Source: Melampsora larici-populina 98AG31
Taxonomy: Eukaryota; Basidiomycota; Pucciniomycetes; Pucciniales; Melampsoraceae
NCBI RefSeq assembly: GCF_000204055.1
Contig: NW_006768777.1
Span: forward strand, 1,056,008 to 1,120,007
Reading direction: 5' to 3'
Length of the DNA: 64,000 nucleotides
Shown here piece after piece: positions 4,790 through 35,509 of the stretch (the stretch's first letter is position 1; the number at the start of each line of letters is the position of its first letter). A program made the translations under genes and the position numbers. Below the pieces are notes generated by a model. The model was not told the DNA's origin and ran no database searches. It was given only the letters and a program-made list of their open reading frames with translations.

Positions 4790-4825
<36 letters not shown>

Positions 4826-4834
4826 TTGTGCGAG

Positions 4835-4869
<35 letters not shown>
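4790..4869 (+). tRNA. tRNA-Gly(GCC) with a 9-nt intron, copy 1
   Basis: The 7-bp acceptor stem GCGTTGT/ACAACGC closes perfectly. The T arm is AGGGG-TTCGACT-CCCCT. The anticodon stem GGGCC/GGCCT encloses TTGCCA, then 9 extra nt (TTGTGCGAG), then T. This gives loop TTGCCAT with anticodon GCC and an intron at the canonical position after nucleotide 37. The D stem has one mismatch. A is the discriminator base and a T5 run follows at about 4874, a Pol III terminator. A near-identical gene lies at 35430-35509. Confidence 0.85.
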
Positions 4870-15424: not shown

Positions 15425-15433
15425 CAGTAACCT
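15425..15433. repeat. 9-bp target site duplication, left
   Basis: CAGTAACCT immediately left of the terminal inverted repeat at 15434. An identical copy is at 35359-35367. Confidence 0.8.
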
Positions 15434-15452
15434 CAAACTTAACTAAGTCCCA
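15434..15452 (+). repeat. left terminal inverted repeat of the DUF6589-helicase element
   Basis: CAAACTTAACTAAGTCCCA, one mismatch against the right end. Confidence 0.75.
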
Positions 15453-15454
15453 GC

Positions 15455-15722
15455 GTGCCGGGGTTTATACATAGCAACCAATGACCAAGGCACGAGGGAC
15501 TTACTCCTTATCCTGAACTTTTGGCGTGGTTCCTTGAGATTTTTAGTAGGGGAAATTTAGGATTCCCTTTTGCCCCAACTCCCCATAATCTCCTGTTCAG
15601 AAAAAAATGGGTATGAAGAAGTGCCTGCTTCTTCTTCATCTTTCTGTCTGTTCGATTTTTTGTTTACGTTTGTGGTTATGTTTTGTTCTCAACACTGAAA
15701 AGTTGGTGTCCTGAAATCTGGA
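15455..15722 (+). repeat. long inverted repeat, left arm (partner 19234-19500)
   Basis: About 267 bp from GTGCCGGGGTTTATACATAG to about GGTGTCCTGAAAT. It pairs with the reverse complement of 19234-19500 at roughly 90 percent identity by eye. It is either a separate foldback element of about 1 kb (before Tc1 insertion) or an intrinsic sub-terminal structure of the larger element. No own target duplication was found. Confidence 0.7.
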
Positions 15723-16437
15723 AATTTGAACATGCTGCGAGAATGTTACACAAGATACACAAGACATACACAGAAACCAAATTTCAAATTGATGAAGTGT
15801 AGAGAGGGTGAGAACTGGAGAGATTGAGATTCAAGGAGACATGAATAGAGGGAATCAAGTGTGAGAGGAGGAACTGGAAACAAACCACAAGCCAGTGTTC
15901 TAGACTGCGATCTGTTTGGCCTTCAAGTAATTCCATCAAAAAATGACCGTCAAAATGTCCAATTTGAAAAAAATACGCTTGAAAGTCTTCCCTTCATTTC
16001 CAGAACGACTCGAGGACATTTCTAGGATTGGATCCAAGATCAGTTCTTTCAATCAATGTTGGGTATACATTGGGAAATGTGTGGTTGAGCAAAGCTGACA
16101 ATATATTGCTGAGCAGGTCGACAAACATTGAAAGATTGAAATTTCAAATTCAAAATTTTGAAAACTGGGTGTATACCACATGTACATATATACAGTGGGT
16201 GATCAAAAAGCTACGGTCTTTTCAAAAAAATAAAAATAAAAATACATTTTTTTATAACATTTAATGATTAATAGTAATTTCCCAAATGATGTTTCTGATG
16301 TAAATAGATGAAAATGATCGTAAGCATCTTGTCTATCTGTAGACATGACAAAATAAACATACCTTGTCATTCAACAAATATATGAGCATGTTTCACCAGC
16401 GTGTCGATTTACCCTTGGCTTCAAGAACAGCTTTGAT

Positions 16438-19132
16438 TCAATCAGGCATTGATGATACTAAGTGCTCAAGTTTTTCAGAGGGGATAGCCTTCCATGCATT
16501 TGATATTATGATAGGTATAGTTTTAAGTGTAGGGATTGGATTGGTAGCTGAGACCGTATTTTTGAGGTCGGACCAGATATTTTCAATTGGATTGAGATCT
16601 GGTGATTGAGGTGGCCAAATTAACTTGACAATGTCTCTTTCATCACGCCAATTAGATGTAATTTTAGAGGTATGTATCGGTGCATTATCTTCCATCAAAA
16701 TTAGACCATGTGCTTCTGGTGAATTCTCAAAGAATTGTCCAATGACAGGTTCACATACTTGATTGATGTATGATTCTGAATTCATTCTGCCTGAGTCCAA
16801 TACCACTCACTACAAAGAATATAATGTTTTCCGGGCAGAAAACGCAAATATTGATACACAAAAATATTGAGCGGTGAGGAGGAGGGCAAAAAATACAAAA
16901 AAATATGGCTGTTGTTCCTGGTGTTGAGAGCTTCAATCTGAGTATTTTTTTGTATTTTTAGAGTGCATATTGTTGAATGTACTAACAAAAAACCCCATAT
17001 TCATCAGATATACACCTGTAACAGATGCTGAAGTTCAGTTCCTCAGATTGGAGAGGACAATTTGAATCTAATATATAAAAACGTAGAACAGGCCCGCATG
17101 AGTTCGGTTCCATGTTCCGTTCCAATCCCAACCCGTTTGTTATTGGCCTTCTATTTGTTGCTTTTCTTTTCTCTGCTTTTCCATTTTCTTTTAGTCCCAA
17201 TCTTAGTCGGGTTCCATCGCCGCTTTTTTTAGTCTTGTCAGCTTTTGCCCCGATCTTTTACTCTGTGTGTTGTCTCCTTTTTGTTTTTTTCTGCTATCAG
17301 AAATTCCATTGTTCTTTTAATGTGCATCCTCTCTGCTTTTGCATTTTCTGTGCGTTTTGTTTCTTTTTCTTTTGTTATCCGCTCTACCTTCAATGCCGTA
17401 TCCTCCACCCTTTTCCTTTTCCTACTGTTATCGCGCTTCTTCCCCCGCTTTTGTTTCTGTCTCTTACCACCTCCTATATTGTTCTCTTTGATTTCCTCTT
17501 GCCTTGCTGTCGCATATTCGGATCCCTTTGGTTATCTCTGACTTTTTTTTTCTTACGCTCCTCTTTTGTGCTTTTCAATCTTATCTCATCAATGCTTCTC
17601 TACATATAGCTTGCTTTTGCTTTTGTTAATAGCCTCCGCACTCCTTTAGTTCAAACTCTGTCCTTAGCTCTATAAATACCGCCCTTTTTTGCTCCGTCTT
17701 CATGATTACTCATCATCCACTGTATAGTCTTAATCGCTCAGCTTTACTGCAATTAACAATTGATTTTGCGTTTGGTGTTAATCTTGATTCAAGAGGAATT
17801 CAAGAGGAATTAGCTCTCCAGGCCCCAAATGTAGTCCATTAAAAAATAATAGAGAATGTGGTAACAGTGTTGAATTCAATTGAGGAATTAGATTGTTATT
17901 TTGGAGTCCCGGACACCTGTTGCGGGCATGCCCGCATATTCTCTAGTTCTACAAATGCTCATAAAATTTGCAATTCTTGCTCAAAAGACTCGCTTTTAGG
18001 CTCATTAGAAAGCCCCAGTCTCTCTCTAAATGTCTTAATAATGATTCAAGGCTTCATTTTCTCTCACAAGGCAGCTATAGTCACTTTGAAATATCTTCTT
18101 CAAAGCCACATAGATTCTTTGCAAAGCTAGACACAGCCCCATCACCTCAATGAAAGATCTAGAGACAGAGTTCAGCTTTCTAATGAACCAATAATCGAGT
18201 GTTTTCCTTGCCAATTGCAAAATTTATGAGCATTTGTAGATTTCCAATTGTCCTCTCCAATCTGAGGAACCAAATTTCAGCATCTGTTACAGGTGTATAT
18301 CTGATGAATATGGAGTTTTTTGTTAGTACGTTCAACAATATGCACTCTAAAAATACAGAAAAATACTCAGATTGAAGCTCTCAACACCAGGAACAACAGC
18401 CATATTTTTTTGTATTTTTTGCCCTCCTCCTCACCGCTCAATATTTTTGTATATCAATATTTGTGTTTTCTGCCCGGAAAACATTATATTTTTTGTAGTG
18501 ACTAGATCAAGCTTAGTTCCAGCATAGAATCCACCCCATACCATCACACTTGAATGACCTGATTTGTGAGAAGCAACTAAACAGGCGGATTGATACTTTT
18601 TTTTAGATTTTTGTTGGACATGCACACTGCCGTATGATTTTCCCACCTCAAACGTTGATTCATCTGTCCAAATTACTGATCTCCAATCTTCAACTGTCCA
18701 ATCTTTATGGCGCTTTGCAAACTCAAGACGGTCACAAATATGTTGAGCATTTAAGTATGGCTTGACCGCAGCCACTTGAGAGTTATATCCGAGGTTTCTC
18801 AACGAACGTCAAATGGTGCACTTGCCCACTTTAGTAGTTGATTTTTTGGTAAGCTGATCAGTAGTTGATCTTTGTGACCGTTTGATATCTCGGATCAGAT
18901 GTTGATGATCACGACTAGTCAAAATTCTAGGGCGTCCTGATGGTTTCTTCCGTTCAACAGAGCCAGATAGCTTGAGCTTTGAAACTACAGTTTGAACTGT
19001 GCTGGCTGATAGACCACATTCTTGAGCAATATCCACGTTTCTTGCTTTAAGACGATTCATTCCAATGATTTGGTTTTTGACTTCAGATGTAAGCGGCTTC
19101 ATGGTGAGAATATGAGAGGTGATGGTCAACAA
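16438..19132 (-). pseudogene. Tc1/mariner transposase, split by a 1.7-kb insertion
   Basis: The DDE transposase cuts and pastes at TA sites. The N-terminal helix-turn-helix part is 19132-18809 (EVKNQIIGMNRLKARN; GRPRILTSRD). The middle is 18802-18504 (VIWTDESTFEVG, first catalytic D; VMVWGGFYAG). The C-terminal part is 16804-16438 (LILMEDNAPIHTS, second D; SPDLNPIENIW, catalytic E; spacing DD34E, typical of Tc1). Two lesions: a TGA at 18809-18811 in an otherwise open frame, and the CACTA insertion at 16808-18500. Deleting the insertion plus one ACT rejoins the frame exactly at the LDLV/VLDSG junction. Confidence 0.85.
16808..18500. mobile_element. non-autonomous CACTA-type (EnSpm-like) element
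   Basis: Ends CACTACAAA and TTTGTAGTG, flanked by the 3-bp target duplication ACT (16805-16807 and 18501-18503), the hallmark of CACTA elements. Unusually long inverted repeats of about 255 bp (to about 17072, and from about 18245). The interior of about 1.2 kb is pyrimidine-rich on the plus strand around 17112-17640 and has no recognisable transposase, so it depends on enzymes made elsewhere. Confidence 0.75.
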
Positions 19133-19233
19133 GGAGAGGTGTGAATTTGGAAATTTGATTGATTGATTTTTTTTTTAAAAAAAACTGTAGCTTTTTGATC
19201 ACCCACTGTACATACACCATCCGCAGTTCCTCC

Positions 19234-19500
19234 TCCAAATTCAGGAACACCAACTTTTCAGTGTTGAGAAAAAAAATAACAAAAAATGTAAACAAAAAAT
19301 TGAACAGACAGAAAGATGAAGAAGAAGCAGGCGCTTCTTCATACCCATTTTTTTATGAACAGTAGATTATGGGAAGTTGGGGCAAAAGGCAATCCTAAAT
19401 TTCCCCTACTAAAAATCTCAAGGAACCACGCCAAAAGTTCAGGATAAGGAGTAAGTCCCTCGTGCCTCGGTCATTGCTTGCTATGTATAAACCCCGGCAC
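19234..19500 (-). repeat. long inverted repeat, right arm
   Basis: Reverse complement of 15455-15722; ends CCCCGGCAC at 19500. Confidence 0.7.
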
Positions 19501-19522
19501 AATTCTAGCTTGACACAAGCCC

Positions 19523-19575
19523 CCCCAGACCTCCGGAGCCTGCGGAGGGGGGGCTTGCGCCTTATACACAAATTG
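19523..19575. repeat. GC-rich sub-terminal hairpin, left
   Basis: AAGCCCCCCC and GGGGGGGCTT enclose CCTCCG/CGGAGG, giving a strong hairpin, followed by TTGCGCCTTATACACAAATT. The reverse complement is homologous to 35256-35325 near the other end (TTTGTATAAG, then GCAAGTCCCTCCTCC), so these are inverted sub-terminal repeats of the same element. Confidence 0.7.
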
Positions 19576-19607
19576 TCGTGTGATACCCTTTTTAGTTTGG
19601 CAGGGAC

Positions 19608-19612
19608 TAACT
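19608..19612. repeat. 5-bp target duplication TAACT (left of the Gypsy element)
   Basis: TAACT here and at 28041-28045. Confidence 0.85.
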
Positions 19613-19941
19613 TGTAAGGATATACCTTACAGGTAGAGCTTAGTACTGTAGTTATGGGATATGGGTTTAGACATCAAGAGTGTAGTCATCTTAGTTGCCC
19701 TGGCTCTCGAGTGAATCTTCTCCTTAAGGAGACTCTCCTACTTGGAGCCAGGTAAGCACATCATTCAGTTCTCTTTTATATCTTATCTTGTGTGTTTGGT
19801 GTTAGTGTAGTAGCTGATTAGAAGGAGACTCTCCTACTCGGAGCCAGCTGTTTGGAAATATAGAGACGTCATTTTGGTGATTTGCGCTTTCGAGCTGTCC
19901 CACATACCCCAGTGAAGGTTCTCTCTTATTGAGACCTTACA
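19613..19941 (+). repeat. 5' LTR
   Basis: 329 bp, TGTAAGGATATACC to GAGACCTTACA. Compared with the 3' LTR I see ACTTGG for ACTCGG near 19740 and GTGATTTGCG for GTGAATTGCG near 19877. Confidence 0.92.
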
Positions 19942-20101
19942 CTTTTTTCACCAAAACCTAAACTATCTTTCAATTCTATTCGTCTCAACCTTGAAAATTT
20001 CCGAACTCTTGCTGTATAACCACTTCGATTGAGTCCAGAAAAACCGTGCTGCTATTTCTGTCGTTGCTGTCCCTCGATTATTTGAATCTGTTCTGTCTCG
20101 G

Positions 20102-23100
20102 ATGTTAGATCGTCGAAATCTGCCGGAAAATTTTTCTGATAACCCTGAAGCTATTCTTCGGCGCCGTCGAGCAACTGTACAATCTGATCTGCATGAAACC
20201 AGTCCGCCGACGCCAACCCCTCCACGTTATAACTGGAGAGAGGAAGTTCCAGAAACCCCGGGTTCCGAATACCGGGAACTCGCTGCTAGTCTACCTATTC
20301 AGTCAACTACTGACCGGAAACCATCAATTCCAGCTGCTCACTCGCCGACTCATTACGCTGATCTGTCAAAGTTAAGTGATAAGGAGATTGTCCAAAGTTT
20401 TTTCCATCGACTGTTACGAGGAACACCTCGAAAACCTTACGACATTCAAGCTACGCCGAGGCCACCGGGGGCTTTCATTCACACACCCCAGGCACGTGAA
20501 GTGTACGTGATGGCGGATCCCTCGTCGTCAGCGGGCAAAGGCAAGATGCCAATATCAAACGTTCCCGAAGAAGATCAAATCGAGTCACTAAAAAATCAAC
20601 TTCGTGAAGCATCTGAGCAAAACAAAATCCTAGAATGTCGCTGTCAACGGATAGAAGTCTTGGAAAGTTTGGTAAACGATCTGGCTCGGGAACATCGGTC
20701 TAAAGCAATAGGCGTGGAAGGGAACAGCTTGCAGTCATCTAGATCAAACAACCCTTTTGCTCAGTATATGGAGAATGCTCCGGTTTCGCCTTCGCCAGTC
20801 GTGAATCCTCAAAGTACTGGAAGCAGCGAAATTGAATCACCTCCAGCAATCAATTTCGCGTCTCGTCCCACTTTTGCTACGTTGCCACCGCTGCCGGCTT
20901 ACAACTCAGAATCGGGCGGTCAAACTCTGCCAATTCCTCAAACCGCGGTGCACTGGACCTATCCATGGACCCAGTCAACACCAGCAGTTCGTTGGGTCGC
21001 CCCGGAAGCTCCTCCTGTTTCATTACCAATCTTGTCGCCAAGATCCCCGGCGCTACCACCTCCACCTTCGGCCACGGTTCCTCCACGGGAAGAATCGGTC
21101 GACGCATCAGACAGTCGTAGTGATGACTCCAGTTCGACAGTGACCGCAAGTAAAATACGACTAGCGGAAGTTCCTAAATACAAAGGACCTTATGGGAAAC
21201 CAGCCGAGTTGTTTCATTGGCAATGGTTGACAGAGCAGTATTTCGCCGTGAAAGACTTGAATAGCGACAAAGAAAAGTTGAAACTTCTAGGGTCATTATT
21301 GATCGATCCTCAAGCTTCGGCCTGGTATCAATCGGCTAAGTCGGAGTTGGAAGGAAAGCCTTGGGAGGAAGTGATGGACTTATTGGCGCTGGGCACGTTG
21401 CCAGAGGATTGGGTGGCAGATATCGAGCAGCAGCTCAGGAAACTACAAATGAAACCAATGGAATCATTTGACTCTTTCATCGAACGAGCTCAAGGACTAC
21501 ATCGAACAATTCATCGATTCTCTCGCATCACTCAGAAGGAGTTAGCTCAGTACATTTGTTGGGGATTACCGTCGATTTTCGACAGCACAGTTCGAAAAGA
21601 TCGACTACTCTTGGATGAAAAATTTAACATGATAACTTTTGTGTCTCGAGCTAAAGCAACATGGCGAGTACTTGTGGATGGGGGACAAGTTAAGGAAGGA
21701 CGGTCTCGTGGTTCATCTTCGAATCCGTTCACAAACAATCAACCTTCGGTCCCTCCACCAACTGGTCCTAGTAATACATTCAGATCATCTATCAAAAGTC
21801 CCGAAGAACGAGCTGAAAATGCATGGAGATACAAGCAATGGATGAAACATCTAGGCTTGTGTATGACTTGCAAGAAGAAATGCAATAACCCAACCTGTAA
21901 CGACTTCTCCAATGCATTTGTCAGTGTCCCACCGCCGGATCAGTTCAACGCTGGACCTCGACCACCTCGTAACGAACCTCGTACTGCACCGGGATCAGCG
22001 CTACAAAGACCGGCAGGCCGCCCAGCGAGTGTTAACTCAGCTCCAACATGTATCGCCGCCTTGACCGAATTGCCTGAAATCACAAATGCTGAATTGGAAC
22101 GCTATGCAGAGGCAGATAGGGTCTTAGTGGCTTGTGTGGAGGAGGAAAGACAGGAGAGGTGCACACCTATGCATAGGGAACCATCGATCATTGTTAACCT
22201 TGTTTGTAACGGTCTTCCCATTCGTGTCTTGTTTGATTCAGCTTGCGAAACGAATCTGATGGACGAACATCTTGTGAAAAGAGCCCGATTACCGCAACAA
22301 CCTCTGGTTAAACCCGTAACTGTGGGTCTCGCTCTTCACTCTGAAGGGCCGGTAAAGCAACTTACTCATTTTACCTTTGCTAATTTGGATTCCAAGACAC
22401 CATCCATACGATTTGGCGCGAATTTTTTCAAAATTGCAAAGCTTAACGGCGATTATGATATGATTTGTGGTACACCGTTTTTAAAATTACATAAAGTTGA
22501 CATTTCTGTTCATCGCCGTTGTATCGTGCATAATAAGAGTGGGTTGCTGCTGTATGATCGTAATTTCAAAGTATCGGATTGCAAAGAATCAAAAGATGTC
22601 TTGAAGGACCTGGTTAGTGAGCCTCCAAAGGAAGCATTGGTAGCATGTGTAGTAGAAAATCTGAGCAAGATAGAGTGTGCGCGGGGTTTATCTGAAAAAG
22701 AAGAAGCTATGTTTGAAGAATTTAAGAATTTATTTCCTGCTGAATTGCCCGCTGTGGCGGAAGGGGAGGATGATTTTTTCCCTCCCACTGAACAAGACAA
22801 ATCCTTGAAAGTCTGTCACAGAATAGTGTTAACGGATCCAAATGCTGTCATCAATGGAAAGCAATATGGATATCCTTTGAAACATAGGGATGCATGGCGC
22901 AGGCTAATTGATCAGCACTTGAAAGCGGGACGTATTCGCAGATCAAGTAGTCAATATGGCTCACCATCCTTGATCATTCCTAAGAAAGATCCAGAAGCAG
23001 ATCCACGTTGGGTTTGTGACTATCGGGAGTTGAACAAAGTGACGGTTAAGGATAGGTCACCATTACCTAACCCTGATGAAGCAGTACGCTTGGTAGCAAC

Positions 23101-26100
23101 AGGAAAGGTGTTTTCTGTAGTGGACCAAATCAACAGTTTTTTTCAAACACGTATGAGAAAAGAAGACATACCTTTGACAGCGGTGAAAACTCCGTGGGGA
23201 ATGTTTGAGTGGGTTGTAATGCCTATGGGATTATGCAATGGTCCAGCAACACATCAAGCACGTTGTGAGGAGGCATTGGGAGATTTAATTGGCAAGATTT
23301 GTGTTGTTTATATTGATGATATAGTAATTTTCTCAAATTCAGTGGAAGAGCATGAATTGCATTTGAGAGAGGTCTTGAAAAAATTACAGGAAGCTAATCT
23401 ATATTGTTCAGCAAAGAAAAGCAAACTGTTTAGACGGAAAATATCATTTTTAGGTCATGAAATTAGTGAAGAGGGTATTCGAGCGGATCCAAAACAAGTA
23501 GACAAATTAACTTCATGGAAAACCCCAAGATCAGCAAAAACCCTTAACTCGTTTTTAGGAACCGTGTAATGGTTGAAGAAGTTTGTGGACGGATTAGGTC
23601 AATATGTGGCAACTCTGGCGCCTCTGACAAGTTCGAAGAAGAAACCTACGGACTTTCGGTGGGGAGTAGCAGAAGACACAGCTTTTGAGAACATTAAACG
23701 TTTAATTACAACCCTGCCGGTATTGAAAAAAATTGACTATGATTCCAATGATCCGGTTTGGTTGTTCTCGGATGCTAGTGGTTATGGCCTCGGCGCTGCG
23801 CTGTTCCAAGGGAAGGAGTGGGAAACGTCCTCACCAATCGCTTATGAGAGCCGCACGATGTCACCAGCGGAACGAAACTATCCTGTTCATGAGCAGGAAT
23901 TGTTAGCGGTTATCAATGCCTTACAAAAATGGAAGTTACTGTTACTTGGTCTCAAAGTAAATGTAATGTCTGACCACCATAGTTTGGTCCATTTACTGAA
24001 GCAGCGTAATCTTAGTCGTCGGCAGGCAAGGTGGCTCGAGACTCTTGCTGATTTTGATCTCGACTTCCGATACCTAAAGGGTGAAAGCAATTCGGTTGCG
24101 GACGCTCTTTCACGACGGGAAGGTGCGGCAGCTGTGGAAATTAAAGCTGAATTGGATGAAGCAACTGAGAAAGCCATAGTCACGGGATATAAGATTGACC
24201 CATTCTGTTCGAAACTTTCCCGAACGTTACCTCTGCGTGATGATAGCATGAAAGTGGGAGACTTGATGTATCTCGACGGCCGTCTCGTAGTTCCGGAAGT
24301 TAAAAGCCTGCGCACGGAAATCATTTCACGTGTTCACGACAGTTTAGGACATATGGGGTTGTTGAAAACGGCTGAACAGCTACGTCGGGAGTTTTTTTGG
24401 CCGGGAATGTTCAAAGACGTGAAGGATTTTGTCTCAACATGCGATAGTTGCCAGCGTAATAAAGCCAGAACCACGCTCATATCAGGAAGGTTGCAAGCGA
24501 CCGAGGTACCACACGCACCCTTAGAACACATCAGTTTAGATTTTGTTGGTCCGTTCCCTAAAGTGAATGGATACGATATGATTCTACACCACGAACCCCC
24601 TGTAACCAGGCCCCATCGGGTGGTGACCCCCGGTTGGGGACCGGTTTACTTGTTAGTGGTGACCACCGTTGATAACACGTGGCCGTCTTACCGTGTTGTA
24701 AACGGGTTTTTTAAAACTGGTCACTACACCATTTATCACTAGTTCCAAACTGGTTGAAGCCTCCAACCATGCTTGCTAAGAAAGAGACAATAGGCTTTTT
24801 ATCAACTCAATTCAATGTCTCAATTCATACTCACTTGCTCATAAAAGCACAAAACAAACAGAGGATTCAATCCAAGTTAATTATTACATTCAGAACAACC
24901 CATTTACTGGACTGTCAAAGATTAAGAATACAAAAATGAAACCTTGATAAGATAGAAAATAAGAGATGAAAATGATTGAAACAAACAGCTCAAAACTAAG
25001 GATAACAAAGACAAGGAAAAAAATATATTACAGACATGAAACATACATTGATAAGAGAGAAAATGAGAGGAAATGAAAGATGGAAACAAAGCCAAAACTG
25101 ATCCATATGCCATACTATAAATCAATACATAAGAACTAGTCTTCATGCACATGCATTGCACTGTTCTGTTCCATGGGTCTCATTCAAGTAGTTGATCACC
25201 TGCAAAATCATCCTGAACCCGACCCAAATCAGGCCTATATTTAGATAAAAGGTGTTGGACCTGACTGAGCTCTACAAGGGAGTTCAGAAGTTGATTGATT
25301 GAGGCCTGATTGAAAATGAAAAACGCACAAGTTTCTAAATGATTGATAGATTGGTTGAGGACAAGTGGATCTGTTCGGATACTAGCTTTTGGTGGTAGGT
25401 ATCATCAACTTCTTGACTGATTGCATTGGCAAAACTAGCTTTGGTCTTCAAAGTTTTGATCGATCTCGAGTGACTAAATCGGAATCGGGTAAGACAAGAT
25501 CTTCTTTCCAATCATTATCAGCTTGAATTGGGCTAGTTTTTATTACTCAGATCTGATTTGTTTACCGTACCATTCGCGCCTGAAGGAAGCACCAGGAGAA
25601 CAACCAAGCCGATACGATTTTAAAAACAAATTGAAGGACAAGAGCTGTTAAACGATGACGATCTAAGAGAGGTAGGTGGGACAAGAAGGGAAGTGTTGAT
25701 AGTTGATTGACATTCGGATGAGCTATTCGGATGAGCTATTTGATGAGAAAGAATCTTCAGCATTCCTACTTTTCTCTTTACCTGATGAAGATAGTAAATG
25801 AGGTTCAGGTGAATCGCGATGTTGTTCAAGTTTAAGTAAGAGTCATCCAAATTTGATAAAAAGCAAAATCCACCTAAGCATCTCTTTTGGGAGATAACAG
25901 AGAAGTCAGGTCAGTATCATGTGATTGGGATGTAAGTGTGAGGATGAGGTAAGGGGAATGATGAGATCATGAAGTAAATCTGGATTGAATTGTTGATGAT
26001 GATGACTAGAAGGTTGATTTGTAGGATTCAATGGACTTGGTGGTTATATTTTGATGAGATAGATTGGATGGTGATGGTGATGATGATGATGATGATGATG

Positions 26101-27307
26101 AGAATGAATTAAATGTTCGTGGTCACTAAAGGTTAAGATAGTTTTAAAATAAGTTGATAGAATTTTTGAATTAAGTGTTCGATTTAATTTTCATTTTGGT
26201 TCAAAGTCTTTAAAGTCTCTTGATTCTTCAACCGGTGAAGAAGAGTTAGGCATCCGATAATTGATCAACCACAGGAAGCTTGGAGGTGGTGCTCATGGTA
26301 TTTTATGTGGTGTTTTGAATAGCGGTTTTGCAACTGCTTGGACACTGGTCAAACAACCGGTAGCCAATCTACCGCGCAGAAAACGGATCACAGTCCAACA
26401 ATTTGCGAGAGGACCATCGGGTTGTCAGCGGGTCAAATTCAAAACCCCCTGGCACCGGTTTTTCAACGAAAAGAGGGTTCGTGGTGTATCGTGTACTTGT
26501 CGCTTGTCGGGTTTTGTTCGACTAATCCCCGTTTCTCAGAAGGACAATGCTGAGAAGACCGCGCGACGAGTATTTACTTCGTGGCTTGCAATCTTTGGCG
26601 CACCATCGTCGATGATCGGTGACCGTGACAAGATTTGGGTGTCACGCTTCTGGCAGCATTTAAATGAACGGTTACAAATCAAGGTGAAACTATCAACATC
26701 ATATCATCCTCAAACGGACGGTCGAAGCGAGAGGTCGAATAAAACCTTGGGTCAGATCTTAAGGCACTTAGCGTCATCGCGTCACACAAAGTGGCTAGAG
26801 TCCTTATCTTCGGTTGAGTATGCCATTAATTCATCGGTGAACGCAGCAACAGGGATCAGCCCATTTCAGTTTGTCTTTGGGCGACAACCTCGCCTCTTTC
26901 CGAATCAATTAGCTTCCCAAATTCGGGAGAGCGACGCTCATAGATGGATTGAAAAACGGCGTGCAGATTGGGCTAGTTGGCGAGATAGATTGTGGGCAAG
27001 CAGGGTGGAGCAGGCGTTGCAGTATAATAAACGCAGGAAGGGCAGTGACAGATTGCAAGTGGGAGATTGGGTGTTAGTAGACAGTGAAGATCGTCAACAC
27101 ATAGTAGGGGGGAAAGGTCGTACGGTAGCTAAGCTGAGAGCTCGTTTTGATGGTCCTTATGAAATCAAAGCGGTCAAAAATGATGGGCGGAACTACGAGT
27201 TGCACCTGAACGAAGATGACAAGACTTACCCAACTTTTCACATTTCGAAATTGAAGCCATACAGGAGGGAAGAGGGTTTAACGTTGGGGACTGAGGTCCA
27301 AAAGTAA
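20102..27307 (+). pseudogene. Gypsy gag-pol polyprotein, one stop and one insertion
   Basis: One long frame from ATG 20102. Gag (retrotransposon gag-like, about residues 345-490), a Cys-rich finger-like motif CMTCKKKCNNPTC near residue 590, and aspartic protease near residue 715 with LFDSACETN (DSA instead of the usual D[ST]G). Reverse transcriptase with VVYIDDIVIFS near residue 1070. A TAA at 23567-23569 interrupts the FLGTV-WLKKF segment between RT and RNase H. RNase H has LFSDASGYGLGAAL and YPVHEQELLAV. The integrase has the H-H-C-C finger (HDSLGHMG, CDSCQ) and DFVGPFP (first D). It is then broken at 24586 by an insertion and resumes at 26489 with RLSGFVRLIP, GDRDKIWVS (second D) and SERSNKTLGQ (E). 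Apart from these two lesions the frame is open. Confidence 0.9.
24587..26486. mobile_element. 1.9-kb TA-target DNA transposon inside the Gypsy integrase
   Basis: Exactly 1900 bp. Both ends carry the 12-bp inverted repeat CACCACGAACCC, flanked by TA (24585-24586 and 26487-26488). Removing it with one TA restores the integrase frame (GYDMIL to RLSGF). No transposase recognised inside. The interior is AT-rich with a (GAT)n tract near 26067-26110, and its composition resembles host intergenic or gene-flank DNA. TA target suggests Tc1/mariner mobilisation, but the repeat does not resemble the two Tc1 elements here. Confidence 0.8.
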
Positions 27308-27711
27308 GTTCCTCTCCTAGTATGCACCGCCGCTACCCTTCTACACGTTGTAAAAGCAATTCCACGGCCACGTTGTGAGCACATCTCTGGTCCGCTTCTT
27401 AACAACAGGGACAGGCACGATTCACGACCTCAACATACGACACATTCAGGGTTCTCATTCAGTTCCTTAGTTTTCTTTTTTTTACTTAGTTTTCCTTTTT
27501 GCTTTTTTTCAATTAGTCTTTTTACTTTTTAATTTCTTTCAGGGGCGAGTCATGCCAACTTTTTAAGGGCGAGTCATGCCAATTTTTTTTCTTTTTCTCA
27601 TATATCAAGTCAAGAAATCACTTAGGAGTACAATTGAGGTGGAATATTTTCTTTTTTTTCTTTCTTTTCTGAATTATCTAGTATTCTTTATTTCTTTTTA
27701 GAGGGGGAGGG

Positions 27712-28040
27712 TGTAAGGATATACCTTACAGGTAGAGCTTAGTACTGTAGTTATGGGATATGGGTTTAGACATCAAGAGTGTAGTCATCTTAGTTGCCCT
27801 GGCTCTCGAGTGAATCTTCTCCTTAAGGAGACTCTCCTACTCGGAGCCAGGTAAGCACATCATTCAGTTCTCTTTTATATCTTATCTTGTGTGTTTGGTG
27901 TTAGTGTAGTAGCTGATTAGAAGGAGACTCTCCTACTCGGAGCCAGCTGTTTGGAAATATAGAGACGTCATTTTGGTGAATTGCGCTTTCGAGCTGTCCC
28001 ACATACCCCAGTGAAGGTTCTCTCTTATTGAGACCTTACA
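27712..28040 (+). repeat. 3' LTR
   Basis: 329 bp; same ends as the 5' LTR; followed by the duplicated TAACT. Confidence 0.92.
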
Positions 28041-28378
28041 TAACTCCAACCCCCAATTCCACCGTTTTACACAATCCAAACATTTGAATCAACCTGAGAT
28101 ATCTGTAGATCTTTGTCTTTCCAATCTTTTTGTCTATTCAGATTCTTCTTAACGGTTTCAGAGCTGAAAAGTGTAAAGGAGCTCTTATTTTGGAACTCCA
28201 AATTTTGATTGCTGAACTTGCTGCGACTACAGATGATTATACATACACTGGTTCTTTTGAGTTAAATCTTCCTCTGTACTATCCCATCCGGTGGTGATCT
28301 ATCCACCTTGAACTCTCTATCAATCAATACTGTGATACTTCCTTGTCATCAGTCTTAGAAATCTTATTGGAAGATTTA

Positions 28379-31300
28379 ATGGACGGAGGTGATCCCAACA
28401 ACCTTGCCTTGGAGCCATCTGTAGGAGCTCATAAGCCATCAACATCCAAACAACCTGTCGGAAGAATTGAAAAGATATGTCAATATATAAATGATCAGAA
28501 GACAGACACGAAGACGTTCATTCTAGATTACCTTTGTTCAAAAAACGAATCCATTGTAAATCGTAAAAAGCAGTGGGGCTTGGCAAAGAAGGGTTGGAAG
28601 ACAACCAAATGTGTATTAGATGAGATTGACACGTTAGTGAATCAAAAACCCGATTGTCAAGAGCTATGGAGGGAATGGGTGCTGAAAAAGGTGTGTTACC
28701 GCATTCTTGCTCTCCAACGTGATACTGACACCATATTTGTTTGAATATCGGCAGGCAAAAGTGATCGTTGCATCACAGTCTCCACCCTCACAGAGTCTTT
28801 ACATCAACGCAAACAAAATCAACATGGAATTCTTCACTCATGATTCAGAGTTAAAACGAGAAACTGAAGTAGTTGAAGGAATGGGATTCTTACATGAATT
28901 AATTACTTTCAAACTAGAATCCGCATATAAATCCTTGAGAGCTCATCAAAATTTACAGGCTGAAAGAAACACTAGCGGGGCTGGTTCAGAAAGCTCAGAA
29001 TCTGACTCAGAATCTGATGATGAGCCCGCAGGATCAGATCAAAATTATGTTTACCATAAGTCAAAGGACAGGTTTAAGAATGCAAAGGAGAGATGGAAAA
29101 GAGTATGCCTCTTGATCATAAACTTCTTGATATGTTTTACCTGGAACTGACCAAAGAGACTGTTTTGGGTGTGGGCCCTTTGTAGATTGCTCTGACAACC
29201 ATTCAGATGATTTCCTATGGCTGTCAACGTTGAAACAACGGACTACAGGTCGAAAATACAATTGCATTCCTTGCCAGCGGGGTTTCAGAACGCGTCAACC
29301 AATATCTCTACTACATTGGCCTAAGTGCATGTCGAAAAACCGCTCTGCGTGGTCTTGTGGCCCTAGCAAAAAGTAAAACTGAATCAATAAAAACAAAGAT
29401 CGAGGCTGCGGGAACTTTTGGGTTTTTGTTGTGTATTGATAATCTTGATATGATGGAAAGGGTACATAGTTGAAAAATCGATGCGACTAGCAAGACCTTC
29501 CATGGGACTTGGGGTTATGTACACTTTTTAAAACCGGAAGTATTGAAAGGTCTGGATCCTGAGAAATGTACAATCCCTTATTTCCAGAGTCTCCTCAAAA
29601 AAGACTGTGAAGAATTGATTGACTCGGGCAACTTGATTCCGGATAACGACCAGCAGAAGAGATGGGTCTTAACTTTGAAAAATCAGATTGCTCAGAACCT
29701 GTTACGCTATATGAAAACACCTGATAAGTACAAGAATATTCCAGTCTCAAACCTACCAGCAATTGACCAGATAAAGGCTGAAAAGCCCGATATTGATATG
29801 CTCAGACTCATGGATTCATCGGACAACGGAAGTGATGGTATTTCTTCGCTTTACGACGAGTTAATCATACAAACTGGACTATCACCAGACAAGTCCTCTG
29901 ATAGACTACAGATTATTGAAGGTGATCTTGGAACCTGTTTGAACTTCTCAGGATTGGAACGACAACACACACCTGCAAAATTTAAAGATGAGAGTCTTGC
30001 TCATCTTATTATGATTCCTGGTGCTGGGCACACGCTATGGAACATTGCGCAAGCTATTTTATTGCATCACTGGGGAAATAAAGATGATAAGAACAATCAA
30101 GGTGTTTGGCAGACATTAGTTGAGCTTGGCGGGGATAAAGAAAAACCAAATTCCAAGAAACATTTTACCTCGATGATCTGCACAATTGAACGAGTTCATG
30201 AAGCTACCATCACCTTTTGCATCTTGTAAGTCTTGGCAGAACATTTTCAGTTTAACTCCACTCTATAACTGATCTTGAATTTGTGATGAAGCGATATTCT
30301 TGCTCTCCCTGTAGCTACAGTTGAGAACCCAATTGAACTCACTGTTGAAGAATTTGAGACAACAGTCAACAAGGTATTTGTAACTTACTTCTCCGGCAGC
30401 GCCCTTCGCAAGGGACGTCAAAATGAGGACCAAAAACGAATTCAATTACTCCTTCAAATTCGCGACTTTGCAACTGTTGTTGAAGCCAACAGAGCCATGT
30501 CCGATGGTGACATTGGAAGACTGATGATCATTTGGCAGCAGTGGAGTATAATGACTCAGGGATTAAAGGGACTGACACACTATTCGAGATACCTACCCCG
30601 ATTGATTCGGCTTTTTAATGTTGTACTTCCCAAACCGGTGTCACACCTGATACTCCATTCACTTTTGATATCTCCAACAGGTCGAGAAGGTCACTTTGTA
30701 GCAAAATATTTCTACCTTGAGGTAAAGAACTTTTGGTTGAAGTACTTCTACAATCATGCAGTGAGTGGATCATTTGTAATTTTAATGGTGTTTTTGAACT
30801 CTTAGACTGATCAATATGCTAATTTCACTAGGGACCTGGAACAGACATCCAGCGATTGAAGGAATCCTTCTCTCTCACAGTTGGGCTGGTAGGTCTTGTT
30901 TCTTTTTTACAACAATTGAATCAAAACAAATTGTTAACTATGACCACAACCACTAACTAAATATACATACATGCTCAGCTTGCATACTTAGTTGAAAACA
31001 TGAAAAGAAAAGCTGGCCGCAACCTTGTGCGACAATCCCACAAGAATCAATCAACACCAGCTTCAGTCATACGCTTCTTGAATATGGCAAGAAGTGAATC
31101 AATCAATCAACATCGCCCTAAATCAGTCATTTCCAGTGGTGCAATCACGGATGTTCAACTTTTAGGAATTAAGAAACTGTCAGCCTGAGGTTTACGAGTG
31201 TGGTAAACTAGCTTGACTAAGACTTACTAAATGTAGGTTTCAAAGATTTCTTTCAAATGGTTATCTTAAAACTGGTTTTTTGATTTCTTAGTAAGTTGAG

Positions 31301-32313
31301 ATAAACTGTAGCTGGTGACTACAGATGCCTTTGGTGCGGAATGATTGCCGCTGCCAGGTACTGGACGAGATGCTGAATATCTCGAGCGTCTTCCAAAGTA
31401 ATAGCTACGATAGCTATCTACACTTCAGGTGGCACTTCAGTGCTTGTTGATTGTCGGAAAATCAAAAAGGTTTTTACTCCGAGTGAAAGTCTTTAGTCGG
31501 ATGGGCTGAGCCAAACGATCTCTAATGCTTTCTAAATCGGAAGTTATGAAAAGTGAAAAGATGGAAGAGGAAGTTTCGTTTCGATAAAAGATAAAAGTAG
31601 ATAGGAAGTCTGTAGTTAAAGATTTCTAGCTATGAGTATCAAAAATCGAAAGGGAAAAAGGTTTGTTTAAAAGTTCTTTGTTTATAAAACTAAAAAAGGG
31701 TTTTGTAAAATTGTAAAAGTGATAAAGGATGATTCTTCTTTCTTTGGTGAGAAAACTTAGTTCTTTATATACTAAACTTGATAAACGTAATATGATGTCA
31801 CGAATAAAACCCTCCTCTTTCGACATTGGTCTGGTCAGGGTTTTTCTGTAGTTTTAGCAACGACATGGCTTTATCTTGTTGTCTTTTAGCCTGGTCAGGG
31901 TCTTTCGTTCTTCAGACCCTGTCCCAGGTTAGTGTTGCATGTTTATCTCGTTATTTTTATTCTTCTCTTACCAAGGGTCAATTAAATTATACCCTTGGTT
32001 TTAGAGATGGTAAATCGGGGTATTATTTTTTTACACTCTTGAAACTCGAGTGATAGAGTTGTAATATATTTTTCAATTAAATATGTATTTTATTTACTTT
32101 GTCAATCTTGGAGGTTTTGCTCTGCAAAACCTCTCTGGTTGACAGAAACTGCGGGATGATCTTGATCACCATCAACTGGAGCGCTTCCACTGGCCACTTT
32201 CTTCAAACTACCGCCAAAAAAACAGTGAAGAACAACAGGATGAGGATTCCCAAGAGCAAGATGAGTTTGGTGATCTTGATGAAGAGTTTGTGAGATGGAT
32301 AGGCGAGGAGTAG
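28379..32313 (+). pseudogene. DUF6589-domain protein, putative transposase of the element
   Basis: Exons 28379-28690, 28755-29102, 29186-30225, 30292-30760, 30832-30888, and a last exon 30979-31177 continuing at 32150-32313 after a solo LTR. All phases agree; product about 862 residues. Blocks typical of the basidiomycete DUF6589 family: LLCIDNLD, QIIEGDLGT, IPGAGHTLWNIAQAILLHHWG, MSDGDIGRL, and SPTGREGHFVAKYFYLEVKNFWLKYFYNHA. The D-N, G-D and later E positions resemble an RNase H-fold DDE triad (inference, not shown). An acidic Ser-rich linker (SESSESDSESDDE) lies near residue 185. Lesions: TGA at 29231-29233 and 29471-29473, both where Arg CGA fits, and the solo LTR. The stop is 3 bp from the convergent helicase stop. 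Confidence 0.75.
31178..32144 (+). mobile_element. solo LTR, 967 bp, inside the DUF6589 gene
   Basis: Ends TGTCA and TGACA (perfect 5-bp inverted termini) and the 5-bp target duplication GAAAC (31173-31177 and 32145-32149). Joining the flanks after removing one GAAAC continues the DUF6589 frame from LLGIKK into LRDDLDHHQLERF and on to a stop at 32313. The internal retrotransposon region has been lost by LTR-LTR recombination. Related fragment at 12043. Confidence 0.85.
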
Positions 32314-32316
32314 CAC

Positions 32317-34807
32317 TTACTTTTGATAAGCTAACTCTTTGGCATCTATTTCATTGATGGGTACTTTTTCCACCAAAAGCCAGTGAATGCATCTCTTGTC
32401 ATATTCAGCTTGGAGTTTTGCATGTTTGTCATCAGCCTTTACGTGTGCTTTTGTCCGTCTTTTTCTTTTTTGTTTAGGTACTTGAGGCTTTCTTGCGCAA
32501 TTCTGATCGGGCTGTGTTAAAACCTTTTCAGCACGCTTCTCTTCACTTTTTTTCTGTTGTTCTATCACCTTTGCTCTTTTGTGCGCATAATTAAGACCTG
32601 TATCACGACCTTTCCACTCTTCCATGTAATCAAAAACAACTTTCACACCTCCTTTCAGCATGTCACCTCCCATCACAACCTTAATTTCCTTTTCCGATGT
32701 CATGTCTTCCAGATGACTAACAATATCTTTTGCGCGATCAAGATCAAAATAATCGGTGCTTTCACAGTAGCCGTCATCCCCAAATATTTCTCTATAATGC
32801 AGTTCAAATACATAAACTAATTCATCCGCAAGTTCCTCCAAAGCTGGGTCCAAAGGGCTATTTCGTTTCTTAGAGGACTTCTTCTTACTATTCTCTTTGG
32901 CAATATTCATCTTCTGAAATTCCTCCTTGAGTTCAAGTGGATTCAAAAATTCTTCTACACTGAATACATCGTCCATGGCCTGTCTGTAATTTGATTTTGT
33001 CATTCTAGGTAGATTGCCAAATAGCATACAAGAGCCTTCTGGGTCGCAGTTTGAGCATTTGCACTCAGGAAAGCCAGCCTTTATCTCTCAATCCTGTTCT
33101 GCTAGGACACATTGATCATCCTTTCTGCAAGGTATCACACCAATCCTGAGCAAGTTTCCAATCAAACTAGTTAGCTTGTATGATGATATTCTTTGTCATT
33201 TAGAAAGAGCTCACGTATTCCCGAGTGAAAGAGCCACACGCAGACAGATCGGCGTGAACGAAAAGGTGTCCATTAGATTGTCATCTGACATCGAACTGTA
33301 ATCATTGACCTCCTCTACCCTATTTATCCCTTTCGGTCGATTTTCTTCAACAAAGTGAATTGCCAGTCCAGGACTAGATCCTCTTCCACATCGACCAAAC
33401 AATTGGGCAAGTTCTGGAAGTCCCATACAGCCCATCACTATTGCCTCCATCACTGTTGGCCAATCTTGACCAAGACCGAGAGCATTAGTACACGACATTA
33501 TGGGGAATTCATCCTTTGAGTAGGGTTTGACTTCCCGTAGCTTTTGTTTTCTTCCAGTACAAGAATGGTACCTGCGGATCAGTGTACTATCTGGATCCTC
33601 CTCTCCTTTTGATGTCCCTTGTGCTTTATTTACCACTTTCATAGCTTCCATTGTTGCTTTTCGTGAACCCGAGTAGATAAGTGACTTGACAAGTTCGCTA
33701 TCAGGGACAATTACTTTGCTACCATAGATCTTAGCGAGATCAGGCGGTGTTATCTTGATCGATCGCTTTGTCGGAATACGGATGATTCAAATATTGGGGC
33801 GACTCAGTTCTCCTCTGAGGATCTCAATATCACATTCTCTGATACTCAAGTTGTTGAGGATAGCAGAGAAGGGGCCGGGAGCACAAGTTGCCGACATCAA
33901 AAGGAGAGGTATCTTGTTTGTTGCTAAAAATCAAAGACAAAGATCCCTATAAGATGCCCGAAACTGACCAACATCCTGTTGGCGCATGAAAGCAATACAG
34001 TGCTTTGCTTGTCTAGTTTGAACCATCCCCCACCAGTAAATCATGTGTGCCTCATCGATAACCTTGAGCACCAAGCAATCTTGAAACCATCGACTGAAGT
34101 AGATACTCTCAAATAGTTTGTTGTTCAAAAAGATATCTGGGCTCTTTTTCCAGAATGCGAGTATTCAATATCAGCTCCTTCTTTTTTTCTTCGTACCTCA
34201 TCATCCAAAAGGCTTTACTGACCAAATAGACTACTTTATATACTCCAGCTATGATATCTGACTTGACCTTTTCCGTAAATGTATCCTTTGTCAAATTTAC
34301 TGCGTTGATCTTCCATCTCTTTTTTTCAACAACTTACCGAGCACGCAAAACAACCAATTAGCTCCAGATTTCATGGAGTAATGTAGGCAAGTGACCTGCC
34401 TGATTGTCCCCCAGCGCGTCTAGTGGATTGATTACAATTATAGTAGCGTTCAATTCTTTTGGAAAAAGAGAAAGAAACAGCTCGGCAATCCGTGTCTTTC
34501 CATAGCCGGTTCCAGCCAATAAGAACGTGTCACGACCCCTGACCAAGGCGATGACGGCTTCAACTTGTAATTTTTTTGCTTCACATCCGTATTCTTTTCG
34601 ATGATTTTCCTCGATCAACTTGCACAACTCATCATCTGCAAGATCCAATATCTCAGCAGGAAGGACCACTTTGGATCGTGTTTGCTTAGGCACCGAAGTG
34701 GCAGGCGCACGCGCAAGGATCTCGGTCGGTCTTTGATTGCTGCTGGACGTCTTTTGGTGCTTATCTGAGCTTCGGAGGGTACTTTTTCTCGTCTCCGTGG
34801 TCGACAT
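32317..34807 (-). pseudogene. RecQ-like DEAH helicase of the element
   Basis: An SF2 DNA helicase would unwind DNA in an ATP-dependent way. Motifs in order from the ATG at 34807: Walker A LAGTGYGKTR, LSPDIFLNN (after an intron), DEAH box VIDEAHMIYWW, motif III LLLMSATC, LIYSGSRKA, motif V SCTNALGLGQDW, and motif VI LFGRCGRGSSPGLAI. A CKCSNCD Cys cluster and a lysine-rich C-terminal domain follow (36-kDa size range; PKQKRKRRTK). This arrangement matches a helicase family very abundant in rusts. In-frame TGA codons at 33931-33933, 33787-33789 and 33088-33090 kill it; each fits Arg CGA. Several introns. One donor near 34405 may be GC rather than GT. Convergent with DUF6589. Confidence 0.8.
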
Positions 34808-34859
34808 AGCGGACGATCGATCGATTTTTTGCGCTGGATATATTGAACGTCGAAGAGTT

Positions 34860-34990
34860 TTACTTCAATCTTTTTGTATCTTTTTTTGTCTCTCCCTCTC
34901 TATTTTTCTTTTTGTCTCTCCCTCTCTCTGCTCTCTCTCTCTGATCCCTCTCTCTCTATGTCCTCTGTGTCTTCCTCTCTCTGTTGTCTA
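34860..34990. repeat. CT-rich low-complexity tract
   Basis: Imperfect (TCTC)n runs just upstream of the helicase start. This purine-rich or pyrimidine-rich tract may be part of its promoter. Confidence 0.6.
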
Positions 34991-35255
34991 AAAGGTTTTG
35001 GACAAGAGAATAGTTTCAACCGTCAGCGCAGTTGTTTGATCAAGCAAGATCAATGTTACAGTCTTCAGTTCTCCACTGAAGACTACAAATACAAATAAAC
35101 ACATCTGGATTTTGGAAAGAAAGAAGTACAAGATGTAGCGGAACAACTTGGCTGATTTAGAATTGTTTGCCGTCTAGTGGTGAGTCGAGTAGCTTAGATG
35201 GAGTCGAAAACGGTCAAAAAACACGAATTTCAACAAGGGTACCAGGCAAGGAGAT

Positions 35256-35325
35256 TTGTATAAGTCGCAAGTCCCTCCTCCGCGAGCTCCCCCGGGACGC
35301 GCGCCTTTGAGGAGGGACTTAGTTA
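35256..35325. repeat. GC-rich sub-terminal hairpin, right
   Basis: AAGTCCCTCCTC and GAGGAGGGACTT form 12-bp arms around a GC-rich loop (CCCCCGGGACGCGCGCC). Inverted homologue of 19523-19575. A second, inner copy of the terminal motif (GACTTAGTTAAGTTG) follows before the true end. Confidence 0.7.
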
Positions 35326-35339
35326 AGTTGGGGCACAAT

Positions 35340-35358
35340 TGGGACTTGGTTAAGTTTG
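35340..35358 (-). repeat. right terminal inverted repeat of the DUF6589-helicase element
   Basis: TGGGACTTGGTTAAGTTTG; reverse complement matches the left end at 18 of 19 positions. Confidence 0.75.
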
Positions 35359-35367
35359 CAGTAACCT
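35359..35367. repeat. 9-bp target site duplication, right
   Basis: CAGTAACCT, identical to 15425-15433. Confidence 0.8.
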
Positions 35368-35429: not shown

Positions 35430-35464
<35 letters not shown>

Positions 35465-35473
35465 CTCGCACTA

Positions 35474-35509
<36 letters not shown>
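35430..35509 (-). tRNA. tRNA-Gly(GCC) with a 9-nt intron, copy 2
   Basis: Identical to the gene at 4790-4869 except for one base within the intron (TAGTGCGAG for TTGTGCGAG). That change supports the intron assignment, since the mature sequence is unchanged. A T5 terminator follows the 3' end. Its 3' end is 71 bp from the end of the large transposon. Confidence 0.85.

What the first reader, a model, noticed from the sequence alone, without database searches (positions are those of the whole stretch)
15434..35358. Candidate undescribed DNA transposon: DUF6589 protein plus RecQ-like helicase, 19-bp TIRs, 9-bp target duplication
Seen: matching 19-bp inverted ends (one mismatch), identical 9-bp flanks CAGTAACCT, inverted GC-rich hairpins just inside, and two convergent genes. 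Known: DUF6589 and this helicase are each expanded in basidiomycetes, and a domain of unknown function is all the first has. Inferred: DUF6589 is the transposase, since LLCIDNLD, EGDLGT and a later Glu could form an RNase H-type triad, and the helicase assists transposition. After removing nested elements the core is about 6.5 kb. A 9-bp duplication also fits Mutator-like elements, but no MULE motif was seen.
Basis: partly seen in the sequence, partly recalled or inferred. Interest (0 to 1): 0.93.

Follow-up and report, generated by a model that had tools for sequence, protein, structure and literature searches.

The report
Nested AcademH-like transposons with helicase
What looked like one new 20-kb jumping gene is two members of one family, one inserted inside the other; the family, which carries a helicase and makes 9-base target copies, closely resembles the already described AcademH transposons, but its ends carry DNA hairpins that deserve a look.

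Summary
The observed ends, 9-bp flanks and two convergent genes exist, but the unit is drawn wrongly. The claimed ends (15434/35358, TSD CAGTAACCT) belong to outer element A (about 4.1 kb, no DUF6589 or helicase found). Its right terminal repeat is split by inner element B (19505-35331), which has its own 9-bp duplication GGCACAATT, its own ends, the DUF6589 + helicase pair and a nested LTR element. The gene pair groups with copies inside B-type ends (69-70% identity), not A-type (30-51%). Genome-wide, 86 of 94 listed DUF6589 loci have the helicase nearby (85 convergent; shifted controls 3-4), and 27 of 31 paired insertions have exact 9-bp duplications. A helicase-encoding transposon with 9-10 bp duplications is already in print: AcademH (Kojima 2020, not held; TSD statement read in a passage of PMC10045372). 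So this is most likely an AcademH-type family with DUF6589 as transposase (conserved acidic residues; fold not shown; homology to Academ untestable here). Less expected: the terminal repeats hold stem-loops whose stem sequence differs between subfamilies while complementarity is largely kept, which suggests, without proving, that a hairpin matters.

The parts
15425..15433 (.). Target duplication of outer element A, left copy (CAGTAACCT)
15434..15715 (+). Left terminal inverted repeat of outer element A; stem-loop at 15444-15503
   Evidence: 15455-15715 is 94.7% identical to the inverted copy at 19240-19500; fold z -5.16
16438..19174 (-). Tc1/IS630-type transposase pieces inside A (DDE_3; HTH_Tnp_Tc3_2 just under its cut-off), interrupted by a further element with about 264-bp inverted repeats (16807-17070 / 18237-18501)
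19240..19504 (-). Right terminal inverted repeat of A, inner part, cut by insertion of B
19496..19504 (.). Target duplication of inner element B, left copy (GGCACAATT)
19505..19568 (+). Left end of inner element B (diverged tip plus stem-loop)
   Evidence: aligns with B's right end, score 62 against maximum 32 in 500 shuffles; fold z -3.27
19613..28040 (+). LTR retrotransposon inside B (gypsy-type by eye from its reading frames): 329-bp LTRs with 2 differences, 5-bp duplication TAACT (19608-19612 / 28041-28045); described only
28298..30805 (+). DUF6589 gene pieces of B (candidate transposase), with an in-frame stop between the first and second acidic motifs (unless an intron lies there), so probably decayed
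   Evidence: PF20231 1.1e-23 and 1.3e-29 on two pieces
32317..34864 (-). Superfamily 2 (RecQ-like) helicase gene pieces of B, motifs GTGYGK, DEAH, SAT, GRCGR
   Evidence: DEAD 3.1e-06 and Helicase_C 1.2e-04; motif positions; RecQ assignment rests mainly on copy L013
35260..35331 (-). Right end of inner element B with stem-loop
   Evidence: fold z -2.85, 2 of 200 shuffles fold as well
35332..35340 (.). Target duplication of B, right copy (GGCACAATT); also part of A's right terminal repeat
35341..35358 (-). Outermost 18 bp of A's right end
35359..35367 (.). Target duplication of A, right copy (CAGTAACCT)

Best explanation
The stretch is a stack of insertions. An element A without detected DUF6589 or helicase (15434-19504 plus 35341-35358) landed beside a tRNA-Gly gene. 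A second member of the same broad family, B (19505-35331), then landed in A's right terminal repeat; B carries DUF6589 and a RecQ-like helicase, and an LTR element later landed in B. The family works like, and most likely is, AcademH: DUF6589 is the DDE-type transposase that recognises the CWAACTTAAC-type tip and the adjacent stem-loop, cuts and joins with a 9-bp stagger, and the helicase opens or remodels end or target DNA. Shown: nesting, 9-bp duplications, gene pairing and co-inheritance, conserved acidic residues, terminal complementarity beyond chance. Inferred: catalysis by DUF6589, the helicase's role, recognition of the hairpin.
For: Nesting. The gene pair goes with B-type ends: the DUF6589 pieces are 69-70% identical to the C11 and C9 copies, whose flanking ends are of B's type (C11 ends match B's right arm at 80-81%), and only 30% and 51% to the copy at C2:2364623, whose ends match A's arm. 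27 of 31 distinct paired insertions have exact 9-bp duplications, all 27 different. The end motif occurs 386 + 387 times, against 8 + 12 for the reversed pattern. 86 of 94 DUF6589 loci have the helicase within 12 kb, 85 convergent; shifted controls 3, 4, 3. DUF6589 and helicase divergence correlate, r 0.90, 0 of 10000 permutations (18 of 21 loci). Helicase RecQ-like: TIGR00614 2.4e-13 on copy L013. AcademH makes 9 or 10 bp TSDs and encodes helicase (PMC10045372 passage).
Against: No Academ transposase sequence was held, so homology of DUF6589 to it is untested. The PDB profile search found no transposase, Pfam links DUF6589 to no DDE family, the structure model failed, and 12 acidic positions, not three, are at least 90% conserved. 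The window's own helicase pieces match RecQ only weakly (0.0027) and one fits RecG better (8.1e-05); by PDB sequence search that piece is nearest DEAD-box RNA helicase MSS116 (6.6e-05; RecQ4 0.053). 13 of 20 fetched DUF6589 loci showed no complete end pair inside the fetched stretch by the motif scan. 2 of 31 pairs have no duplication. 8 of 94 DUF6589 loci had no listed helicase. No empty site of A was found in the assembly.
Confidence: 0.8

Rival explanations
1. A new superfamily: DUF6589 is an unrelated transposase that acquired a RecQ-like helicase independently of AcademH, and the 9-bp duplication is a coincidence.
For: No paper in the held library contains DUF6589; DUF6589 has no detected link to another family.
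Against: Helicase, 9-bp duplication and presence in Basidiomycota together match AcademH as cited; superfamilies are defined by the transposase, which could not be compared here.
Confidence: 0.12
2. One composite 20-kb element bounded by the reader's ends moved as a unit, carrying the genes.
For: Perfect 9-bp duplication CAGTAACCT around 15434-35358.
Against: The inverted copy of A's left repeat at 19240-19504 ends exactly where GGCACAATT and B's left end begin, and the same 9 bp recur after B's right end; the simplest history is B into A.
Confidence: 0.02
3. A Mutator-like or Kolobok-type (KolobokH) transposon.
For: MuDR elements duplicate 4 to 10 bp with their IS256 kin (PMC10045372 passage); KolobokH also encodes a RecQ helicase and is known only from fungi (PMC9587614 passage).
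Against: No transposase family among the Pfam matches of the 15 DUF6589 proteins besides DUF6589 itself (Pfam may lack a Kolobok model); Kolobok duplicates TTAA (recalled), whereas 27 different 9-mers were seen.
Confidence: 0.05
4. For the hairpins only: the complementarity inside each end is made by replication slippage or template switching between arms (quasi-palindrome correction), not kept by selection.
For: 80-93 bp elements made largely of two arm copies exist, showing that arms are readily joined or copied; such correction (recalled) makes hairpins more perfect without any function.
Against: Conserved tips and loops beside changing stems, and unpaired junction bases kept in several subfamily members, fit selection for a structure better; not decisive.
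Confidence: 0.4

Closest known systems
AcademH lineage of the Academ superfamily (Kojima 2020, Mob DNA 11:15; the paper itself is not held, known here from citing passages)
   Same: TIR DNA transposon of fungi that encodes a helicase next to a transposase and makes 9 or 10 bp target duplications; here 9 bp
   Different: Not tested whether DUF6589 is homologous to the AcademH transposase; stem-loops inside the TIRs are not mentioned in the passages read; copies are numerous here, while the passage calls AcademH low-copy
KolobokH (PMC9587614, passages read)
   Same: DNA transposon of fungi with a RecQ helicase
   Different: Helicase lies downstream of the transposase domain there, here it is a separate convergent gene; TTAA duplication (recalled) against 9 bp here
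Mutator-like elements
   Same: Duplications of 4 to 10 bp for the group, here 9; long TIRs (recalled)
   Different: No MULE transposase domain found; a helicase is present

Membership tests
AcademH | 9 or 10 bp target duplications | tested here: met
   27 of 31 distinct paired insertions exact 9 bp, 1 of 9 bp with one mismatch, 1 of 8 bp, 2 none; rule
AcademH | encodes a helicase beside the transposase | tested here: met
   86 of 94 DUF6589 loci, 85 convergent; helicase families
AcademH | Academ-type DDD/E transposase by homology | not testable with these tools
   No Academ sequence held; protein database switched off; Kojima 2020 not held
AcademH | terminal inverted repeats | tested here: met
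DDE transposase in general | RNase H-like core with D, D, E/D | tested here: inconclusive
   D85 20 of 20, D88 20 of 21, D252 23 of 24, E434 24 of 24, but 8 other acidic positions are also at least 90% conserved; model of a window piece failed, pLDDT 37
KolobokH | TTAA target duplication (recalled) | tested here: not met
   27 different 9-bp duplications
Mutator-like elements | MULE transposase domain | tested here: not met
   No MULE family among the 7 Pfam families matched by 15 DUF6589 proteins at E up to 10

The most novel reading that the evidence does not exclude
The transposase-helicase pair recognises its ends partly by shape: each terminal repeat must be able to form a stem-loop (cruciform or, after helicase unwinding, a single-strand hairpin) whose stem sequence is free to change as long as the arms stay complementary. 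That would be an unusual mode of end recognition for a DDE transposon and would explain why these transposons keep a RecQ-type helicase. DUF6589, until now without a function, would be the AcademH transposase.
Probability: 0.3. Interest if true: 0.78.

Novelty: new member of a known kind. Interest (0 to 1): 0.45.

Why it matters
It would give a domain of unknown function, with 104 scored matches in this one genome, a role as a transposase, and correct a nested insertion that could be misread as one element. If the terminal stem-loops are required, they would help explain why some DNA transposons carry RecQ-like helicases.

Tried and rejected
Considered and rejected: one 20-kb unit; Kolobok and Mutator membership; the idea that A's ends belong to B's genes. 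Led nowhere: empty-site search for A (only the two flanks themselves); AlphaFold2 on the window's 251-aa DUF6589 piece without an alignment (pLDDT 37, no fold search made); PDB profile search (two chance-level hits); DUF6589 in plasmids and viral contigs (no relative); Rfam on 15000-36000 (none); a paper search for terminal hairpins with helicase and Academ (18 papers, listing only).

The 31 paired insertions were chosen for inward-facing recognisable ends, from the places listed (773 in all) and from the 20 DUF6589 loci, plus B. Solo ends were not examined. One pair present in two contigs with the same flank (L054, L055) and one fetched twice (L002, L065/L066) are counted once. In one search, 63 distinct sequences stand for 90 of the 100 listed ends (213 in all); 10 rows, the short whole-element palindromes that would pair trivially, were left out (recount). 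In one search single groups do not all stand out: for 9 of 14 at least one foreign right arm scored as high as their own, for one of them all 13. In one search three of the 12 rows pair in a register one column off (my reading), and the slide by +3 scores 0.091 against 0.093 for the structure itself. Left out of the correlation: L016 (partial piece), L026 and L027 (near-copies of L025).
Full report
OBSERVATION. The chance expectation for the motif in the window at up to 3 mismatches is 0.02 matches; 3 were found. Between them lie a DUF6589 gene on + (PF20231, 1.1e-23 and 1.3e-29 on two pieces) and a superfamily 2 helicase on -, with helicase motifs GTGYGK, DEAH, SAT and GRCGR at 34513, 34056, 33894 and 33396.

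THE UNIT IS TWO NESTED ELEMENTS. The left arm of the claimed element has an inverted copy, 94.7% identical over 262 bp, at 19240-19500, not at the right boundary. That copy is the right terminal repeat of the outer element (A), and it breaks off at GGCACAATT (19496-19504). The same 9 bases stand at 35332-35340, followed by A's last 18 bp. What lies between, 19505-35331, is element B: its two ends align with each other (score 62; best of 500 shuffles 32) and it holds the gene pair. A's own left repeat, which runs on without interruption at the matching point, acts as a paralogous empty site for B. A is about 4.1 kb by arithmetic, not counting B; no DUF6589 or helicase match was found in its part of the window. 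It holds Tc1-type transposase pieces, themselves split by another element with about 264-bp inverted repeats. B is 15,827 bp including an LTR element (19613-28040; LTRs 329 bp with 2 differences; 5-bp duplication TAACT), so about 7.4 kb by arithmetic.

THE GENES GO WITH B'S ENDS. The window's DUF6589 pieces are 69-70% identical to copies at C11:365551 and C9:652170 and only 30% and 51% to the copy at C2:2364623. One search lists an end pair around each of the first two; their stems begin TCCTC and end GGAGGA like that of B's right end, and the C11 ends match B's right arm at 80-81%, while the ends around the C2 copy match A's left arm.

A LARGE FAMILY. In the window's genome (98.3 Mb, 243 contigs) the end motif with up to 2 mismatches occurs 386 + 387 times, against 8 + 12 for the reversed pattern. 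DUF6589 gives 104 matches (lower bound: 102 of 248 candidates scored), merged to 94 loci. Of these, 86 have a match to the window's helicase piece within 12 kb and 85 are convergent; with helicase positions shifted by 100, 250 and -150 kb the counts are 3, 4 and 3 (from the lists). Eight DUF6589 loci had none. All 20 loci fetched carry both genes in the same convergent arrangement, with DUF6589 pieces mostly 25-67% identical to the window's, and the divergence of the two genes is correlated (r 0.90; 0 of 10000 permutations; 18 of 21 loci). Of the nine end pairs of 7 kb or more fetched, six enclose both a DUF6589 and a helicase match and three a helicase match only (coordinates).

HELICASE TYPE. 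Copy L013 matches the RecQ family model TIGR00614 at 2.4e-13, far below that model's own cut-off (49.7 against 219.8 bits). The window's pieces match RecQ at 0.0027 and, for the C-terminal piece, RecG at 8.1e-05; by sequence the nearest solved structures of that piece are MSS116 (6.6e-05), with RecQ4 at 0.053. 'RecQ-like' is therefore a family-level reading from the better copy.

NINE-BASE DUPLICATIONS. Among 31 distinct insertions with paired ends, 27 have an exact 9-bp duplication, one has 9 bp with one mismatch, one 8 bp and two none. The 27 sequences are all different. The fetched elements range from 80 bp to 18.2 kb. Of the 20 DUF6589 loci, 7 showed both ends by the motif scan inside the fetched stretch; one (L017) has its ends outside the stretch, found; one (L010) has a long inverted repeat with decayed tips; four showed one end and seven none. 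This counts against a uniform end motif: subfamilies vary.

STEM-LOOPS IN THE ENDS. The ends mostly have the form tip (CWAACTTAAC), then TAAGTCCC, a variable stretch, a loop, its complement, and GGGACTTA. Single-strand DNA folding gives z from -2.85 to -5.16 for the seven ends folded, among them A's left end and both ends of B. In 14 groups of ends the left variable arms pair with their own right arms better, in sum, than with permuted ones (79.5; best of 20000 permutations 72.0, mean 53.0). This test does not depend on the fixed outer arms, which the search pattern required. It is a result over groups: in 9 of 14 at least one foreign arm does as well. In one subfamily set of 12, two stem pairs and one outer pair show changes on both sides; the covariation score (0.093) is reached by 0 of 500 shuffles, the number of pairs with a change on both sides by 10 of 500, the further pair types by 27 of 500; slid versions score 0.008-0.091, the highest being +3. 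One outer-arm pair changed from T-A to C-G (L019). Six fetched loci hold elements of 80-93 bp, little more than two tips around hairpin material, with 9-bp duplications (L053, L054 and L055, L062, L063, L064). I read this as selection for a hairpin, or else as repeated copying between arms; the data do not decide.

DUF6589 AS TRANSPOSASE. Across 24 loci (some near-copies of each other) the two D of DNID (20 of 20 and 20 of 21), D of EGDLGT (23 of 24) and E of DFATVVE (24 of 24) are nearly invariant, but so are eight other acidic positions, so the triad is a choice, not a result. By eye the first two follow hydrophobic stretches, as in DDE cores. The fold is not shown: the window piece alone gave pLDDT 37, the PDB profile search gave only chance hits, and Pfam links it to nothing else. 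The window's copy has a stop between the first two motifs and is probably dead; an open 544-aa frame exists in L013.

WHAT IS KNOWN. The passage read in PMC10045372 says that AcademH makes 9 or 10 bp TSDs and AcademX 3 or 4 bp, and ties this to the helicase and nuclease they encode. PMC10799480 cites AcademH in Basidiomycota, Ascomycota and Mucoromycota (passage). PMC9587614 describes KolobokH with a RecQ helicase in fungi (passage). Kojima 2020 itself is not held, so I cannot say whether it lists this host's families, names DUF6589 or notes the stem-loops. No held paper contains 'DUF6589'. Of the 7 held papers with 'AcademH' I searched passages in five (PMC10799480, PMC10045372, PMC12210899, PMC8290104, PMC9970103); the passages shown do not mention terminal hairpins, but I did not search those papers for that word.

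VERDICT. A real, numerous transposon family, wrongly delimited in the finding, and most likely AcademH: a new member of a known kind. The parts worth following are DUF6589 as its transposase and the stem-loops that change in sequence while largely keeping their complementarity.

Noticed in passing
L053-L055, L062-L064: Very small elements (80-93 bp), little more than two tips around hairpin material, each with an exact 9-bp duplication; one (L054, L055) occurs in two contigs with the same flank, so the assembly may hold both haplotypes in places.
   Followed up: partly
window 35430-35509 (-) and 4790-4869 (+): Two tRNA-Gly(gcc) genes; element A's duplication ends about 60 bp from the first.
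   Followed up: no
L067 (C16:647840-648225): Two same-orientation copies of an A-type end 311 bp apart, perhaps a solo or tandem end structure.
   Followed up: no
window 16807-18501: Element with about 264-bp inverted repeats (95.8% identical) inside a Tc1-type transposase gene; its exact ends and duplication were not settled.
   Followed up: partly
window 51962-51979 (+): A further weak end-like site, 2 mismatches to an 18-base form of the motif.
   Followed up: no
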